Below, piece by piece: positions 18,333 to 24,474 of a DNA stretch of 31,862 bases. Origin of the DNA: a virus; the IMG/VR virus record IMGVR_UViG_3300045131_002106, positions 1-31,862 of that record; one strand, 5' to 3'. A program made the translations under genes and the position numbers. Under the pieces are notes generated by a model. That model made no database searches, had not been told where the DNA came from, and saw only the letters and a list, made by a program, of their open reading frames with translations. Every line of letters starts with the position of its first letter. The stretch's first letter is position 1.

Positions 18333-19079
18333 ATGAGTGAAGTTACATTGTCCAAAATGATCGAAGCCGCAATCGACATCAACGAACTGTTGGCTTTCGA
18401 CGCCCCAATCAAAGTTGAAGGAAAAGATGTTGTCCAGATCACGGCGCAGATTGAAAAGAAGCAGAAAGGCGATGACGCTTTCCTCGCAACCGATTTTGTT
18501 CCCGGCGCCAAAAACTCCCTGAAGATTGCAACCGTGGCCGCATTAAAGGCAATGAAAGTCACAATGCCGAAAATCTGGGCGGACCGCTTGGCCGATGCTA
18601 TTGAAGACGGTGTCGTTGATTACGAAGCTCCTGCGAAAGACAAGTCCAGCGAAGTGCAGGCCAAGGGCAAGGCAAAAGTAGACGAAGCCAAGGCGAAATC
18701 CAAGCCGGCGGCCCCGAAAACAGAAGTGAAGGGCAAAAAAGTCGACAAGAAGACAGATGCGGAAGTCGAAGCAGAAGTAATGAAAGAAGTCGAAGGCGAC
18801 AACGACAGCGAAATCGAAGCTGAAGTCGTCAAAGAGGTCAAAAAAGCCGCGAAAGATGCGAAGCTCAGCAACAAGAGCATCTTCGGTCATAACCGCTCCG
18901 CAATTTCCGGCAAGATTGACGAAGAGTTGATTGCAAACGGCGGGACGCTTGAGACGATTGCGGCCGCGGCTGGATGTGATACTGCTCGCGCCAAAGCCCA
19001 TATCAATCACCTTGTCGCGAATAAAGGCGCAGAAATCACCTTGGACGAAGAGGGCAATTATGCTATCGTCCTCGCCTAA
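18333..19079 (+). CDS. Protein with Lys/Ala/Glu linker and C-terminal HTH-like end
   Basis: 248 residues starting MSEVTLSKMI. The ATG at 18333 follows AAGGAGGCTAAA. Residues 1-90 are an unrecognised alpha/beta domain. Residues about 95-180 are a low-complexity, highly charged linker (AKAKVDEAKAKSKPAAPK) with an internal repeat (VEAEVMKEV and IEAEVVKEV). The end has a helix-turn-helix-like pattern (GGTLETIAAAAGCDTARAKA then HINHLVANKG and a wing-like EITLDEEGNY). This suggests a DNA-associated protein, perhaps binding phage DNA during replication or modification. First gene of the operon, followed with 20-bp overlap by the radical SAM gene. Confidence 0.6.
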   Translation: MSEVTLSKMIEAAIDINELLAFDAPIKVEGKDVVQITAQIEKKQKGDDAFLATDFVPGAKNSLKIATVAALKAMKVTMPKIWADRLADAIEDGVVDYEAPAKDKSSEVQAKGKAKVDEAKAKSKPAAPKTEVKGKKVDKKTDAEVEAEVMKEVEGDNDSEIEAEVVKEVKKAAKDAKLSNKSIFGHNRSAISGKIDEELIANGGTLETIAAAAGCDTARAKAHINHLVANKGAEITLDEEGNYAIVLA

Positions 19080-20073
19080 TATCGTCAAGGCAGAGATGCT
19101 GTGGACGCGAAAGTGTCCACTTCATTGCGACTACTGCTCGATGGCAACAGGTCAACCCAATACTCGCGATTTAGAGTATTGGGTTGAGACTGCAAGACAG
19201 CTGAAAAAGTTGAATTGCAGTTTCGCCGCATTCTATGGCGCAGAGCCCCTTTTCGACGACATTGACAAGCTATCCAGAACGATCCAATACTTCGAGAGTA
19301 TTGGAATTGCGACCACGGTTATCACTAGCGGCTTCGTATCGAGCCTGACATCGAAACTCGATGTTCTTTGGTCGCGCAATTTGCGGAGCTTGAGTATGAG
19401 TTACGATATTTTGCCGCTCTGTGACAGTTCTAAAATCAAGACATCGAAGGCGCTGGAGACATTGCAGTATTTTCAATCACTTGGAAAATACCGGGATGTC
19501 GCGGCCATTGCAACATTGACCCGCAAGAATTTTCGCGCTCTTCCGGAAAGTATAAAAACTTTGTCGAAGATGAATATTTGGACTTTTTTCGATATGATAC
19601 ATTCGAACAGGAATCAACCGGGCTCAAAAGTTAAAGACAGCGAGATAACTCGCGAACTGCTTTTTGCCCCGGAAGATTTTAATGACTTGGCAGAAGTATT
19701 ACGCGAGGTGCTTGCACTCAAGCGCGAAGGAATGCTTTGTCATGTTTCGGAATTGTTTATCGATAAAGTTATGGCAAACGATTTCGAAGTTCTGCGGAAA
19801 TATAATTGGCATTGTTGCGATCATCTCAGTTTCCCGGCATGGGTTTCGATAGACTGCGACGGAACGGTGTCTTGTTGCGACGACTACAAGAGCGATAAAA
19901 TTAAGATCTATTCAAACAGAATAGCCGAAGATTTTCAACTGTTTTCCAAACTGTATCGGGAATCTGCGCGAGCGGAGTGCTCCGGATGTCTTTGGAACAC
20001 TCATTATGATGCCCATATGATTAAGGAAGGCCGATACGGAATCGGCAATTATATTCACGGAGAAAGAGAATGA
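19060..20073 (+). CDS. Radical SAM protein with SPASM-like C-terminus
   Basis: 337 residues. The ATG at 19060, inside the previous gene end, follows GAGGG. The radical SAM signature C-x3-C-x2-C is RKCPLHCDYC (C19, C23, C26), binding a [4Fe-4S] cluster. GAEPL replaces the usual GGEP. The C-terminal part has HCCDHL, the SPASM-like SIDCDGTVSCCDDY and ECSGCLW, probably ligating an auxiliary cluster. QueE, the radical SAM step of 7-deazaguanine synthesis, is normally shorter and lacks these extra cysteines, so this is either a divergent replacement or an enzyme modifying a later intermediate. It lies in one operon with methyltransferase, QueC, FolE and DpdA genes, implying action on the modified base. 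Confidence 0.85.
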   Translation: MLSSSPNIVKAEMLWTRKCPLHCDYCSMATGQPNTRDLEYWVETARQLKKLNCSFAAFYGAEPLFDDIDKLSRTIQYFESIGIATTVITSGFVSSLTSKLDVLWSRNLRSLSMSYDILPLCDSSKIKTSKALETLQYFQSLGKYRDVAAIATLTRKNFRALPESIKTLSKMNIWTFFDMIHSNRNQPGSKVKDSEITRELLFAPEDFNDLAEVLREVLALKREGMLCHVSELFIDKVMANDFEVLRKYNWHCCDHLSFPAWVSIDCDGTVSCCDDYKSDKIKIYSNRIAEDFQLFSKLYRESARAECSGCLWNTHYDAHMIKEGRYGIGNYIHGERE

Positions 20074-20621
20074 AAAAATTGAACCTCGGATGTGGCGACG
20101 ATATCTTGATTGGATACGACAACTGTGACATCTTTCCTTGTCAGCCGTCTGTTATCCAAGCAGACATCTTGAATTTAAGAGGAATCCCGTCGGACAATTA
20201 TGCGGAGATTAAATGTTGCATGGTTTTGGAACACGTCCATATCGACTTGGTGCCAACAGCACTGTATCAGATATCGAGAGTTCTTGCTCCAGGCGGGTTT
20301 GTGGACATTACTGTTCCAGACTTCGATTATTTCGTGCAGAAGTATTTGAACAATAAAGGCAAGTTAACGAAGACGATGAACTTCCATAACTTCTACAATA
20401 TTACCTACAATCTTCTCGCACCAGAAATCGATCCGAAAATAAGAACTCATCAAGCGTTATTCACCGAAGAGTTCCTGACGATTTTGCTGGTTGACGATGG
20501 ATTTGTTAATGTCGAAACAGTCAGGAAAGCTGGCGGGATTTTGACTGTCTGGGCATTTAAGCATGACGGGAGTTCAAGCACTTTAAAATATGATACTTCT
20601 ACGGAGAGAGAAAATGAATGA
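20070..20621 (+). CDS. Class I SAM-dependent methyltransferase
   Basis: 183 residues. The ATG overlaps the radical SAM stop (ATGA). Motif I is KLNLGCGDD, an acidic residue after GYDNCD ends strand 2, ADILNLRGIP gives the motif II region, and MVLEHVHIDLVPTALYQISR followed by VLAPGGFVDITVPD matches the COG4627-like methyltransferase pattern. Such enzymes transfer methyl groups from SAM. The substrate is unknown. Position suggests the 7-deazaguanine base or a precursor. A 7-deazaguanine methyltransferase (DpdM) has been described in phages, but I understand it has a different fold, so this would be a separate solution. Confidence 0.82.
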   Translation: MKKLNLGCGDDILIGYDNCDIFPCQPSVIQADILNLRGIPSDNYAEIKCCMVLEHVHIDLVPTALYQISRVLAPGGFVDITVPDFDYFVQKYLNNKGKLTKTMNFHNFYNITYNLLAPEIDPKIRTHQALFTEEFLTILLVDDGFVNVETVRKAGGILTVWAFKHDGSSSTLKYDTSTERENE

Positions 20622-21579
20622 AGTTCTTTTATTTTCGGGCGGCATAGATTCTTATGTTGCCTGGCATTACTTGAAGAAACCCAAGACTGTTTATTTCGAT
20701 CTGGGAACACCTTATTCCTCACGCGAGGCTCAAGCTGTATTGCAACTCGTCCCAAACACTGTGATCGACAGGAGCCTTGTTCTCGGCGATAGACAGGCGG
20801 GAATTAATGCCTACATCCCTTATCGAAACCTTTTCTTGGCAATGTTGGCATCTAAATACGGAGACAAGATTTGGATTGCTGGATTAAAAGACGACATGGT
20901 TTCAGACAAAACTCCTGCCGCTTTTTTCGCGATGGAGTCTTGTTTAAACTTTATCGACAAGAAGAAAGTCGTAATAGACAGTCCGTTCTGGAATACAACG
21001 AAATCGCAAGTTGTTGAGTGGTATATTAATCAGGCTCTCGACAAGAACGAGTTGCTGAAAACAATCTCCTGCTATAATGACAAGGAGCAGACAAATTACT
21101 GCGGCACTTGTCCAAGCTGTTTTAGAAAATGGAACGCCTTGCGCGAAAATGGAATTGACATAGAATTCTATAATCCGAAGTTAATGCAGGAATATATCCA
21201 AAGCGCCGAGAACCTTAAATACGACCCGGAGAGGAATTTGTCGATTGTTAAGTGTTGCTCAAATTATACTTGCAAGCGGATTTTTCACTTCGACATCGAT
21301 GGGGTTATTACCAACGAAACGGAAGGATGGGATTATGCGGCCCGGACACCGAATACAGAAGTAATCGACAAAATTAAGGAATTGGCAAAGGGTGGAAATC
21401 GAATAGTGTTCTACACTGCTCGTTTCTCCTGCGACCGCGAAGTGACAGAGCAATGGTTGGCGAAACACGAGATTCAATATTCGAATATCATTTTTGATAA
21501 ACCCGGATATGATTATTTCGTGGACGACAAGGCATACAATTCAATTCACGAACTTTTCAAAAACAAAGGAGCTGTATGA
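20614..21579 (+). CDS. queC: QueC-HAD fusion, 7-cyano-7-deazaguanine synthase-like
   Basis: 321 residues starting MNEVLLFSGG. The ATG at 20614 follows GGAGAGAGAAA. Residues 1-185: PP-loop SGGIDS (8-13) and a zinc site from C153 plus CGTCPSC (163-169), as in QueC, which converts 7-carboxy-7-deazaguanine to preQ0 using ATP and ammonia. Residues 222-315: HAD phosphohydrolase, with FHFDIDGVI (nucleophile D227, D229), YTAR (268-270) and a YFVDDKA motif IV. Family QueC is about 220-230 residues, so the HAD domain is an addition. The HAD half might remove phosphate from a deazaguanine nucleotide (inference). The gene overlaps its neighbours by 4-8 bases, supporting one pathway. Confidence 0.88.
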   Translation: MNEVLLFSGGIDSYVAWHYLKKPKTVYFDLGTPYSSREAQAVLQLVPNTVIDRSLVLGDRQAGINAYIPYRNLFLAMLASKYGDKIWIAGLKDDMVSDKTPAAFFAMESCLNFIDKKKVVIDSPFWNTTKSQVVEWYINQALDKNELLKTISCYNDKEQTNYCGTCPSCFRKWNALRENGIDIEFYNPKLMQEYIQSAENLKYDPERNLSIVKCCSNYTCKRIFHFDIDGVITNETEGWDYAARTPNTEVIDKIKELAKGGNRIVFYTARFSCDREVTEQWLAKHEIQYSNIIFDKPGYDYFVDDKAYNSIHELFKNKGAV

Positions 21580-22511
21580 AAACAAGATACTCAGCCGCGC
21601 AATTTTATGAAGACGTCGCTGTCGTTGCCAAATCAATCCACGCCAAAGGCAGACAGTATTCGCATATCTATCCGATTCCACAAGGTGGAATTCCTTTTGG
21701 AATGGCATTGGCAAGAGAGCTGAAGGCAATGTTTGGCAAAGCAGTTCATATTCTCGACGAAGATGAATACGAAAGCTTAAGAACCCAAAACCAAGAAATT
21801 TTAGTTGTCGACGACATTGCTGATAGCGGCAGAACACTCATGCCCTATAAAGACAGATGCGACACCGCAGTCCTGCACCTGAGGGCGTCCTGCAATTTTA
21901 TCCCAACTTATCATGCGAATTTCGTGCGAGATACTGCTTGGATTGAGTATTGGTGGGAAAATAAAAAGAGCGACATCGAAAGTCACATTGTTCGCCAAAT
22001 CGAATACATTGGAGAAGACCCAAATCGAGAAGGATTGCGCGAAACTCCTGCCCGGGTTGTGAAATCATGGAGCAAGCTGTTTGGCGGATATAAAGCATCT
22101 CTTGAAGATGTTTTCAAGACGTTCGAAGAAGGAGCTTGCGATGAGCTCGTTATCCTCAAGGACATCGAATTCTACAGTCAGTGCGAACATCACTTATTGC
22201 CGTTTTATGGTAAAGCCCATATTGGATACATCCCCGATGGCAAAGTGATTGGCGTCAGCAAGCTGGCAAGACTGCTCGAAGTATTCTCTCGCAGAATGCA
22301 AATTCAAGAAAGGATTGGAGAGCAGGTTACGACCGCGCTGATGGAGCACTTGCACCCGAAAGGCGCAATTTGTGTTCTTGAGGCTCAGCATCACTGCATG
22401 ACGTCTAGAGGGGTCGAAAAACAAGACTCGGTCATGGTGACGAGCTCAATCAAAGGCGCCTTTAAACAAATCGAAACAAGAGCGGAATTCCTCTCTTTGA
22501 TAAAGGCATAA
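21576..22511 (+). CDS. folE: Phosphoribosyltransferase-GTP cyclohydrolase I fusion
   Basis: 311 residues. Residues 1-128: type I phosphoribosyltransferase, with PQGGIP and the PRPP loop ILVVDDIADSGRTL (75-88). The late DTAWIEYWW resembles the base-binding DTWIEQPW end of guanine-xanthine Gpt enzymes (recalled). Residues 136-310: GTP cyclohydrolase I, with IGEDPNREGLRETPARV, CEHHLLPF (zinc ligands C203, H206), GVSKLARL and QHHCMTSRG (C274). FolE makes dihydroneopterin triphosphate, the first step toward preQ0. The stand-alone family length is about 190-220, so the first domain is extra. It might recycle guanine freed by base exchange into GMP, or make a deazaguanine nucleotide; both are inference. 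Confidence 0.9.
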   Translation: MKTRYSAAQFYEDVAVVAKSIHAKGRQYSHIYPIPQGGIPFGMALARELKAMFGKAVHILDEDEYESLRTQNQEILVVDDIADSGRTLMPYKDRCDTAVLHLRASCNFIPTYHANFVRDTAWIEYWWENKKSDIESHIVRQIEYIGEDPNREGLRETPARVVKSWSKLFGGYKASLEDVFKTFEEGACDELVILKDIEFYSQCEHHLLPFYGKAHIGYIPDGKVIGVSKLARLLEVFSRRMQIQERIGEQVTTALMEHLHPKGAICVLEAQHHCMTSRGVEKQDSVMVTSSIKGAFKQIETRAEFLSLIKA

Positions 22512-22515
22512 GATT

Positions 22516-23310
22516 ATGAATATTTTCATGGACAGCGGAGCGTTCTCTGCGCTTAATAAAAAGCAGAAAATCAACTTGACGGAATATATGGATTTCCTGA
22601 AAAGGAATATGAAGTATTTTTCCGCTTATGTTGTTCTCGATGTTATCGGCGATGCCGTTGCAACTTGGAAGAACCAGGAAATAATGGAGAAGGAAGGGCT
22701 TTCCCCGCTCCCTGTTTATCACTTTCGGGATAACCCAAAATATTTAGACAGGTGTTTGGAATACGATTACTTCTGTCTTGGAGGTATTGCAGGAACACCG
22801 ACGAACAATGTTCGAATTCCTTTCTTCAACGACTGCTTCGACAAGATTTGTAATGAGGAAGGGATACCGCAAAATAAAGTTCACGGATTGGGAATGACGT
22901 CTTTTTCATTAATCCGGAGATATCCGTTCTACAGCGTTGACTCTACAAGCTGGTTGATGAATGGGGCAATGGGCGGGATAATTGTTCCAATAAGAAGAAG
23001 AGGAGTTTTCGTATATGACGAAGATCCGTTCAAGATCGCCGTATCTGGAACAAGCCCGCAGACTGGAAGAGATTTGCATTACGACTCGCTCAATATGGAT
23101 GCCAAGAAAAATGTCGACGATTATTTAAAGTTCAAAGGCTATTTCCTTGGACGGAAAGACGTCGACAATAAACACGAAGAAGCAGGGCTTTACTCCAGTC
23201 ACTACGAGCGGATGAAATTGAATATGGAGTTCTTTATTGATTTCCGCAATTCATTGCCGAAATGGCCTTGGCCCATTAAATTTCACAAACAGAAAAGGAG
23301 GTTGTGGTGA
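22516..23310 (+). CDS. dpdA: DpdA-like DNA 7-deazaguanine transglycosylase
   Basis: 264 residues. A TGT-like TIM barrel: MNIFMDSGAF (D6 matches the conserved DSGGF Asp), YVVLDVIGD, PLPVYHF, CLGGIAG (matching GG-A-G), HGLGMTS and YSVDSTSW (D142 as candidate nucleophile). It is shorter than tRNA TGT (about 370) and lacks the TGT zinc site, as DpdA proteins do. DpdA exchanges guanine in DNA for a 7-deazaguanine, protecting phage DNA from restriction (established for the family). FolE and QueC genes immediately upstream, in one overlapping operon, support this over a tRNA enzyme. The subfamily and the exact base cannot be told from sequence alone. Confidence 0.85.
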   Translation: MNIFMDSGAFSALNKKQKINLTEYMDFLKRNMKYFSAYVVLDVIGDAVATWKNQEIMEKEGLSPLPVYHFRDNPKYLDRCLEYDYFCLGGIAGTPTNNVRIPFFNDCFDKICNEEGIPQNKVHGLGMTSFSLIRRYPFYSVDSTSWLMNGAMGGIIVPIRRRGVFVYDEDPFKIAVSGTSPQTGRDLHYDSLNMDAKKNVDDYLKFKGYFLGRKDVDNKHEEAGLYSSHYERMKLNMEFFIDFRNSLPKWPWPIKFHKQKRRLW

Positions 23311-23492
23311 TATTTTATTTTGCAGGTTCAGTCGAGGCAGAGACGTTAATGCCGAAGATTAAAGAGGACCCGGAAGCCGGGGTGTTATTTACATTCTTCG
23401 ACGTTCCGGATAAACGGTTTGCGCAATTAAAAAAAGAAATAAGAGACAAAAAACAAAACAAGGAGACGAAAGATGGAACTGATAGCAAGTGA
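23307..23492 (+). CDS. Small protein after DpdA, possible barrel fragment
   Basis: 61 residues. Start GTG at 23307, 5 bases after AGGAGG (a GTG one codon earlier is too close). It overlaps the dpdA stop and the clamp gene start. The N-terminus VIFYFAGSVEAETLMPKIKE resembles the first strand of some phage TGT/DpdA-type proteins as I recall, so it could be a barrel remnant or a small partner of DpdA. The end is lysine-rich. Unconfirmed. Confidence 0.55.
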   Translation: MIFYFAGSVEAETLMPKIKEDPEAGVLFTFFDVPDKRFAQLKKEIRDKKQNKETKDGTDSK

Positions 23493-24474
23493 TTTGAAAC
23501 TGCAACTGGACAAGCTGAATGCCTTGCTCTCTGCGAAGGGACTTGTTGAAAACGCCAATAAATTTGCTTTCGATCAAGAAGGGATTTATGCCTTCAACGG
23601 AGAGGTATTTATTGCCACAATTTTCCCGACAGATTTGTATGGGGCGGTTGAGGGTGATATTTTCAACAAGTTAATCAACAAGCTCGGCGCCAACAAAATC
23701 GAAATTGTTCTCGATAAAGAAGAACTCGTTATCAGAAAAGGTCGGTCGGAATCAAGAATGGCATTTGATACTGAAATTAAATGCCCTATTGATTTGTCGG
23801 TAAACAAGTGGAAAAATCTTCCCGAAGATTTCGTTGAGGCAATTAACGTCTGTTCATATACAACCGGGTCCGATTATACTGACATGAGAACGGTCTGCAT
23901 ACATTTGAAAGGAGATGTCTGCGAAGCAAGTGATGTCTTCCGCATTACTATTTTCAAAATGAAGTCTGCAATCAAAGACGAGCTTTTTATTCCGAATGAC
24001 ATCCTGCCGTTCTTCAACAAGTCGAAACCGATTAGATATTGCGTGGTCGATAACTGGACATATTTCGAAGACTTGGACGGGACAATAATTGCCCACCGCC
24101 AGCCGACGTTTGAGGGAAAATATCCAAACTTGCAAGAGAAAATATCTTCGCTCAAGGATTTTCATTTGGTGGAGCTTCCTGAGAAGTTATACGAGTCGCT
24201 GGATAAAGCGTCGATATTCTTGGATGGCAAATTTGAAGGCGATAAGTTCGTTTCGGTTACTTGCAACGATGGAACGCTGACGCTTGACAGCAAAGCGACG
24301 GGGCGCTGTTATAAAGACCAGATGAGAATCAATTTTAAGGATCATATCAAGTTCGATGTGAACCCGACCCACCTTATGCAGATAATGGAGAAGGCGAGCA
24401 TTGTTCACGTCAATTCGTCAATCATTAAAATCGACAACCCGAATTGCACTTATGTCGCGGCATTAATTGAATAA
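23473..24474 (+). CDS. dnaN: DNA polymerase sliding clamp (beta-clamp-like)
   Basis: 333 residues. The ATG at 23473 follows AAGGAGACGAAAG. Weak but consistent with DnaN: three domains of helix-strand pattern, KFAFDQEGIYAFNGEVFIAT in domain 1, AFDTEIKCPIDLSV in the linker, and a C-terminal NPTHLMQIMEKA with DNPNCTYVAALIE resembling the final strand of beta clamps. The usual length is about 365, so it is slightly short and very diverged. The clamp encircles DNA and tethers the polymerase. Position directly before the Pol III alpha gene and near a clamp loader supports it. Confidence 0.75.
   Translation: MELIASDLKLQLDKLNALLSAKGLVENANKFAFDQEGIYAFNGEVFIATIFPTDLYGAVEGDIFNKLINKLGANKIEIVLDKEELVIRKGRSESRMAFDTEIKCPIDLSVNKWKNLPEDFVEAINVCSYTTGSDYTDMRTVCIHLKGDVCEASDVFRITIFKMKSAIKDELFIPNDILPFFNKSKPIRYCVVDNWTYFEDLDGTIIAHRQPTFEGKYPNLQEKISSLKDFHLVELPEKLYESLDKASIFLDGKFEGDKFVSVTCNDGTLTLDSKATGRCYKDQMRINFKDHIKFDVNPTHLMQIMEKASIVHVNSSIIKIDNPNCTYVAALIE

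What the first reader, a model, noticed from the sequence alone, without database searches (positions are those of the whole stretch)
19060..23310. Variant 7-deazaguanine DNA modification operon
Five genes with 4-8 base overlaps or 4-base gaps encode a radical SAM/SPASM enzyme, methyltransferase, QueC-HAD, phosphoribosyltransferase-FolE and a DpdA-like transglycosylase. FolE, QueC and DpdA are established parts of phage guanine replacement. The extra radical SAM, methyltransferase, HAD and phosphoribosyltransferase parts do not match a pathway set I know, and QueD and canonical QueE are absent. The final base may be a new, possibly methylated, 7-deazaguanine.
Basis: partly seen in the sequence, partly recalled or inferred. 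Interest (0 to 1): 0.92.

Follow-up and report, generated by a model that had tools for sequence, protein, structure and literature searches.

The report
Phage pathway for unusual DNA guanine
This phage carries a gene cassette that most likely replaces some guanines in its DNA with a 7-deazaguanine, using an extra radical-chemistry enzyme and an altered QueC enzyme found together in dozens of uncultivated phages but in no cultured phage searched, so the finished DNA base may be one nobody has measured yet.

Summary
Five tightly packed genes (19060-23310) encode a twitch/SPASM-like radical SAM enzyme, a class I methyltransferase, a QueC-HAD fusion, a phosphoribosyltransferase-FolE fusion and a DpdA, followed by the clamp and polymerase genes, as in known dG+/dPreQ0 phages. 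This is a 7-deazaguanine DNA-modification cassette. The missing QueD/QueE is probably not meaningful: the window is a 31.9 kb fragment, and in five of six related records without an adjacent QueD it lies elsewhere on the record. The PRT-FolE fusion already exists in cultured phages. The real novelty is a conserved module, radical SAM + divergent QueC ('QueC2') + small HAD phosphatase + DpdA. Of 39 loci with full flanks, found by their radical SAM or QueC2 genes, 37 have FolE, 34 DpdA, 33 QueD and 31 QueE. So the radical SAM is an additional step, not a QueE substitute. QueC2 keeps the ATP, zinc and guanine-edge residues but loses the essential Tyr35 and Tyr131 of canonical QueC. No radical SAM relative was found in 50,697 phage or 72,556 plasmid records. 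Its predicted structure is closest to BlsE; the HAD domain's to a phage sugar-bisphosphate phosphatase. Most likely it makes a hypermodified, so far unmeasured 7-deazaguanine; the chemistry is inferred. The methyltransferase is optional.

The parts
19060..20073 (+). Radical SAM enzyme, 337 aa, CxxxCxxC (C19, C23, C26) plus four conserved auxiliary-cluster cysteines (C252, C273, C307, C310)
   Evidence: PF04055 1.6e-9; 47-member family alignment and column counts; AlphaFold2 pLDDT 94.9; best structural match BlsE 7vob, Z 25.2 over 302 residues
20070..20621 (+). Class I SAM methyltransferase (LNLGCG motif), 183 aa; optional component
   Evidence: PF13489 2e-5; relatives in only 8 of 61 loci by HMM, four more loci with a second MT family
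20614..21579 (+). QueC2-HAD fusion, 321 aa: divergent QueC ligase (about residues 1-219) and small HAD phosphatase (about 220-312)
   Evidence: PF06508 4.9e-17; motif table; model pLDDT 89.6; QueC domain matches QatC, Cap9, QueC (Z 18.0 to 16.9) and HAD domain matches 1xpj (Z 12.9) and AfhF 9iqw (Z 12.8)
21576..22511 (+). Phosphoribosyltransferase-FolE (GTP cyclohydrolase I) fusion, 311 aa
   Evidence: PF00156 9.5e-8 and PF01227 7.7e-68; the same fusion aligns over 92-95% with known phage proteins
22516..23310 (+). DpdA-type DNA guanine transglycosylase, 264 aa (DSGAFSA motif, conserved D6, D42, D142)
   Evidence: PHROG 887 1.2e-46; 40% identity over 164 residues to phage 9g DpdA; alignment A6
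23473..24474 (+). DNA polymerase sliding clamp; not part of the pathway but fixes the synteny DpdA-clamp-polymerase
   Evidence: PHROG 947 1.5e-20; same order in NP1, MMDA13, Bhz54, 9g
18333..19079 (+). Conserved ORF of unknown function just upstream of the cassette (overlaps the radical SAM start by 20 bases)
   Evidence: family found in 28 of 49 loci, median 1.4 kb upstream of the radical SAM gene; no Pfam or PHROG match

Best explanation
It is a phage cassette that makes a 7-deazaguanine base and puts it into the phage's own DNA. FolE starts from GTP. QueD and QueE (elsewhere in the phage genome or from the host) give 7-carboxy-7-deazaguanine (CDG). QueC2, a divergent QueC, activates the CDG carboxylate with ATP and joins it to ammonia or another amine. 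The radical SAM enzyme then does an extra hydrogen-abstraction step on that side chain, with the HAD phosphatase removing a phosphate from a partner or intermediate. The methyltransferase may cap the product. DpdA swaps the base for guanine in DNA, and the PRT domain may recycle guanine that DpdA releases. Shown here: gene content, synteny, conserved module, residue changes, folds. Inferred: the order of steps, the substrates and the final structure.
For: DpdA: PHROG 887 and 40% identity to the 9g DpdA tested in E. coli (PMC6884629). Same gene order as 9g and NP1 up to clamp and polymerase. In 39 radical SAM loci with at least 6 kb on both sides: FolE 37, DpdA 34, QueD 33, QueC2 33, QueE 31, HAD 26; the searches used only radical SAM and QueC2, so FolE, DpdA, QueD and QueE are independent evidence. 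QueE and this radical SAM occur side by side, so it is an extra step. QueC2 in about 80 sequences always keeps R99, N100 and D133 but nearly always replaces Y35 and Y131, and almost always has K/R for C134; Y35A and Y131A abolish E. coli QueC (PMC13329287). Some loci carry both Gat-QueC and QueC2 (L055, L058, L066), although Gat-QueC plus DpdA alone gives dG+ in a queC-deletion strain (PMC6884629), so QueC2 probably does something else. Structural neighbours: BlsE and AfhF.
Against: No biochemistry. The radical SAM is missing from some otherwise similar loci (L091, L096, L105), so it is not essential to the QueC2-HAD-DpdA core. QueC2-like proteins also replace canonical QueC in phage operons without radical SAM or HAD, so QueC2 might still make plain preQ0 or 7-amido-7-deazaguanine. 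A shared fold with BlsE or AfhF does not show the same reaction. QueD/QueE were not seen for this particular phage.
Confidence: 0.6

Rival explanations
1. The cassette makes an already known 7-deazaguanine (dADG, dPreQ0 or dG+) by a different set of enzymes: QueC2 is simply the phage's QueC, and the radical SAM gives an amidine or amide by a RaSEA-like cleavage.
For: QueC2 is the only QueC in the window-like loci and the only one in many other phage QueD-QueE-QueC2-FolE operons. Archaea make archaeosine with ArcS plus a radical SAM enzyme (RaSEA; PMC11298593, abstract).
Against: Tyr35 and Tyr131, needed for preQ0 formation, are lost. The window protein has no RaSEA model among its NCBIfam hits to E 0.01. 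Loci with Gat-QueC already have a dG+ route yet keep QueC2 and the radical SAM.
Confidence: 0.22
2. The radical SAM replaces QueE, so the phage makes CDG by an alternative route.
For: QueE is absent from the 31.9 kb record and the radical SAM sits upstream of QueC, where NP1 and 9g have QueE.
Against: Relatives about 50% identical carry both QueE and this radical SAM; no meaningful similarity to 9g QueE (BLAST E 0.17); it is longer, with four extra conserved cysteines.
Confidence: 0.05
3. The module conjugates 7-deazaguanine to a protein (as Cap9 and QatC do) or modifies tRNA, rather than DNA.
For: The QueC domain model matches QatC and Cap9 as well as QueC (Z 18.0, 17.4, 17.1; tied).
Against: It is linked to DpdA in 34 of 39 loci, with DpdA 40% identical to the DNA-acting 9g enzyme; among ten window proteins scanned with PADLOC no CD-NTase or QatA/B/D protein was found.
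Confidence: 0.06
4. HAD and radical SAM are passengers: useful phage genes that happen to sit in the operon, with no role in base synthesis.
For: Phage operons pick up unrelated genes, and the methyltransferase type varies between loci.
Against: HAD is fused to QueC2 in the window and in several other loci, and to PRT-FolE in L091. The radical SAM is close to a QueC-family gene in most of 49 non-redundant loci across wide divergence (17-50% identity). A 571-aa viral protein named 7-cyano-7-deazaguanine synthase matches the radical SAM model over most of its length, which suggests a radical SAM-QueC fusion.
Confidence: 0.07

Closest known systems
Enterobacteria phage 9g / Pseudomonas phage NP1 dG+ pathway (QueE, Gat-QueC, QueD, FolE, DpdA)
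   Same: FolE, a QueC-family enzyme, DpdA, then clamp and polymerase in the same order; DpdA 40% identical to 9g; PRT-FolE fusion as in NP1
   Different: No Gat domain, QueC2 instead of QueC with only 22% identity to 9g Gat-QueC, plus radical SAM, HAD and methyltransferase; QueD/QueE not on this fragment
Sphingomonas phage MMDA13 7-deazaguanine operon
   Same: QueC, PRT-FolE, DpdA, clamp order
   Different: Canonical-type QueC motifs at the substrate side, QueF-like gene, no radical SAM beyond QueE, no HAD
Newer phage 7-deazaguanine tailoring enzymes DpdL, DpdM, DpdN (Cui et al. 2023, recalled; paper not held)
   Same: Extra enzymes that alter the 7-substituent of a DNA deazaguanine
   Different: This radical SAM has no relative among 50,697 phage records; as recalled, DpdM has a unique fold, whereas the window MT has class I methyltransferase motifs
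QatC / Cap9 deazaguanylation enzymes
   Same: QueC fold; CDG-type chemistry with altered or reduced QueC motifs (PMC13329287, PMC13279940)
   Different: Linked to DpdA and base-synthesis genes; keeps RN and D133 but has xxDK in place of YPDC; no CBASS or Qat partner proteins found
BlsE, cytosylglucuronate decarboxylase
   Same: Best structural match of the radical SAM: Z 25.2 over 302 residues against 21.7 for the next entry, SuiB
   Different: 14% identity; by sequence profile BlsE (2e-7) is no closer than other radical SAM families
AfhF, phage HY126 D-arabinose 1,5-diphosphate phosphatase (9iqw)
   Same: HAD domain 32% identical, Z 12.8 over 93 residues; DxD and DDKA motifs shared
   Different: Separate pathway as far as known; substrate of the window HAD untested

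Membership tests
Phage DpdA-type 7-deazaguanine DNA modification | DpdA transglycosylase with its conserved core | tested here: met
   PHROG 887 1.2e-46; 40% identity to 9g DpdA over 164 residues; D6, S7, G8, A9, D42, D142 invariant in 21 sequences
Phage DpdA-type 7-deazaguanine DNA modification | FolE for the first step | tested here: met
   PF01227 7.7e-68, 3.9e-70 in the record
Phage DpdA-type 7-deazaguanine DNA modification | QueD and QueE in the genome or host | tested here: inconclusive
   None in the 31.9 kb record, which may be a fragment; QueD elsewhere on the record in five of six relatives without an adjacent copy
Phage DpdA-type 7-deazaguanine DNA modification | Modified guanine present in phage DNA | not testable with these tools
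   Needs nucleoside mass spectrometry
Canonical QueC (PF06508 cluster 1 of PMC13329287) | SGGxDS, RN and zinc cysteines | tested here: met
   S8 G9 G10 D12 S13, R71 N72, C153 C163 C166 C169 invariant
Canonical QueC (PF06508 cluster 1 of PMC13329287) | YxQxHxxE and YPDC substrate motifs with essential Tyr35 and Tyr131 | tested here: not met
   Window has LGTPYSSRE and VSDK; the same trend in about 80 QueC2 sequences
QueE | QueE sequence family | tested here: not met
   No TIGR03365 match in the record; E 0.17 against 9g QueE; co-occurs with QueE in 31 of 39 loci
RaSEA (archaeosine radical SAM) | RaSEA sequence family | tested here: inconclusive
   No RaSEA model among the NCBIfam hits of the window protein to E 0.01; for the 47-member family only the first 25 of 64 models were shown
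BlsE-like radical SAM decarboxylase | Same substrate and reaction | not testable with these tools
   Only fold similarity, Z 25.2
Cap9/QatC protein deazaguanylation | Partner CD-NTase or QatA/B/D genes alongside | tested here: not met
   PADLOC scan of ten window proteins in and around the cassette gave only weak pVip, QueC and QatC hits on the radical SAM and QueC proteins, and weak hits on the clamp loader
DpdL, DpdM, DpdN | Sequence family membership | tested here: inconclusive
   Their sequences were not identified here; the radical SAM has no relative in the phage collection

The most novel reading that the evidence does not exclude
These phages carry a new hypermodified 7-deazaguanine made by radical chemistry: QueC2 couples CDG to an amine or sugar-derived amine prepared with the HAD phosphatase, the radical SAM enzyme remodels the added side chain, and DpdA installs the product in DNA. 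This would be a branch of guanine hypermodification not seen in any cultured phage.
Probability: 0.38. Interest if true: 0.85.

Novelty: new variant of a known kind. Interest (0 to 1): 0.66.

Why it matters
Guanine replacement by 7-deazaguanines protects phage DNA from many restriction enzymes, and the known derivatives come from cultured phages. This cassette is spread across dozens of uncultivated phages yet absent from 50,697 phage records searched, so it points to DNA chemistry missing from the present catalogue and gives a defined gene set to express. It also adds a large divergent branch to the QueC family, whose recent survey (PMC13329287) mentions no radical SAM, HAD or DpdA neighbour. 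It may explain some viral radical SAM genes annotated as heme enzyme AhbD, whose role a Baltic Sea virus study calls speculative (PMC9301287).

Tried and rejected
Radical SAM as QueE substitute: rejected, because it co-occurs with QueE. PRT-FolE fusion as a new feature: rejected, present in known phages. Absence of QueD/QueE as meaningful: rejected as a likely fragment effect. Close cultured relatives: none for the radical SAM by tblastn, none for the whole operon by blastn, none in plasmids; no phage protein covers 80% of QueC-HAD. A first scan for radical SAM relatives with the single sequence failed; an alignment found 55 loci. A bacterial home: the one genome hit (Sulfuricurvum MAG) lies on a phage-like contig. 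DpdA against PDB sequences gave nothing, so no solved relative was used for it. Reading the Cui 2023 and MMBR 2024 papers: not held.
Full report
What is there. The five genes at 19060-23310 are real, on one strand and almost seamless. They encode a radical SAM protein with four further conserved cysteines, a class I methyltransferase, a QueC-HAD fusion, a phosphoribosyltransferase-FolE fusion and a DpdA. The flanks are ordinary tailed-phage genes: portal, head and small terminase genes to the left on the minus strand; helicase, primase, clamp, DNA polymerase III alpha, clamp loader and a UvsX-like recombinase on the plus strand. The window is an entire 31,862-base virus record and may be a fragment.

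Why it is a DNA-modification cassette. The DpdA is 40% identical over 164 residues to the enzyme of phage 9g, which inserts preQ0 and G+ into DNA when expressed in E. coli (PMC6884629). Phages NP1, MMDA13, Bhz54 and 9g have the same order: QueC or Gat-QueC, then FolE (with QueD between), DpdA, clamp, polymerase. The PRT-FolE fusion is shared with NP1, MMDA13 and Bhz54. One attractive reason for that fusion, an inference only, is that the PRT domain salvages guanine released by DpdA.

What is different. Relatives of the radical SAM were absent from 50,697 phage records and 72,556 plasmids, but an alignment found 55 virus contigs and one MAG contig, itself phage-like. Among 61 loci analysed, 39 have at least 6 kb on both sides; of these FolE is in 37, DpdA in 34, QueD in 33, QueC2 in 33, QueE in 31 and HAD in 26. 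Since the loci were found with radical SAM or QueC2 only, the other genes are independent evidence of a pathway. QueE and the radical SAM are separate genes in the same cassettes, so the radical SAM is an additional step. Window-like cassettes run QueD-QueE-FolE-radical SAM-QueC2-HAD-DpdA; a more distant group adds an SDR and Gat-QueC, and another group adds proteins with a PIG-L-like HADDE motif.

QueD and QueE. Neither is in the window. In six related records without QueD beside the cassette (L031, L051, L069, L074, L078, L103), five carry QueD elsewhere on the same record. The absence here is therefore uninformative.

QueC2. Compared with E. coli QueC, about 80 QueC2 sequences keep the ATP loop, R99, N100, D133, K165 and the zinc cysteines. 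They almost always replace Tyr35 and Tyr131, and usually have K or R for C134. In E. coli QueC, Y35A, R99A, Y131A and Y189A are inactive (PMC13329287). In Cap9 the equivalent Tyr stacks on the base and the Asp reads its Watson-Crick edge (PMC13279940). QueC2 thus still looks like a 7-deazaguanine enzyme but with a rebuilt pocket. The predicted structure matches QatC, Cap9 and QueC about equally (Z 18.0 to 16.9). QueC2-like proteins also occur in phage QueD-QueE-QueC2-FolE operons without radical SAM or HAD, so making an ordinary derivative is not excluded.

Radical SAM and HAD. The radical SAM model (pLDDT 94.9) is closest to BlsE (Z 25.2 over 302 residues; next entry 21.7), a radical SAM decarboxylase of a nucleoside-like sugar acid (PMC3715490). 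By sequence profile BlsE is not closer than several peptide-modifying families, so this is a hint, not an assignment. C19, C23, C26, C273, C310, W250 and W312 are invariant in 47 members, and C252, C307, H181 and K127 nearly so. A viral 571-aa protein named 7-cyano-7-deazaguanine synthase matches the radical SAM model, which suggests a fusion; its sequence was not examined. The HAD domain matches AfhF, described in its PDB entry as a phage D-arabinose 1,5-diphosphate phosphatase. HAD is fused to QueC2 in the window and to PRT-FolE in L091. Together these point, weakly, to a side chain derived from a sugar phosphate.

Most likely mechanism. Shown: the gene set, its conservation, the folds and the residue changes. 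Inferred: GTP to CDG by FolE, QueD and QueE; ATP-dependent coupling by QueC2; radical tailoring; dephosphorylation; optional methylation; exchange into DNA by DpdA. I put about 0.9 on DNA 7-deazaguanine modification, 0.7 on the radical SAM being a tailoring step, and 0.4 on a base not yet described.

Limits. No experiment, no complete genome of this phage, and the main papers on recent phage derivatives (Cui 2023; MMBR 2024) could not be read here, so statements about DpdL, DpdM and DpdN are from memory.

Noticed in passing
L050:9332-13815, and the like in L053, L056, L057, L063, L071: A further cassette type in which SDR (absent in L057), radical SAM, a short QueC-like protein, a protein with a PIG-L-like HADDE motif and a ~310-aa LIxVPQYP protein occur together with DpdA; three L050 accessory proteins from this set had no Pfam match.
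   Followed up: partly
window 18333-19079: A ~190-270 aa ORF of unknown function lies just before FolE or the radical SAM in 28 of 49 loci, including the window, with no Pfam or PHROG match for the members scanned.
   Followed up: no
window 19060-20073: 11 of 47 members of this radical SAM family match the heme enzyme model AhbD (TIGR04545), best E 4.4e-12. Unexplained viral 'ahbD' auxiliary genes reported alongside queC and queD (PMC9301287) could be this DNA-modification enzyme.
   Followed up: partly
L150, L155-L157 (JAQTTG010000010.1): A contig binned with a Sulfuricurvum MAG is a phage-like contig with the same cassette and replication genes plus what look like sugar-nucleotide genes by eye; a weak hint to hosts of this phage group.
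   Followed up: partly
L091:10005-11504: Single ORF joining HAD, phosphoribosyltransferase and FolE domains, in a locus where no radical SAM relative was detected.
   Followed up: no
L119, L122-L126, L130-L149: Many virus contigs have QueD-QueE-QueC2-FolE operons with the same altered QueC motifs and usually no DpdA detected nearby; their product is unknown.
   Followed up: no
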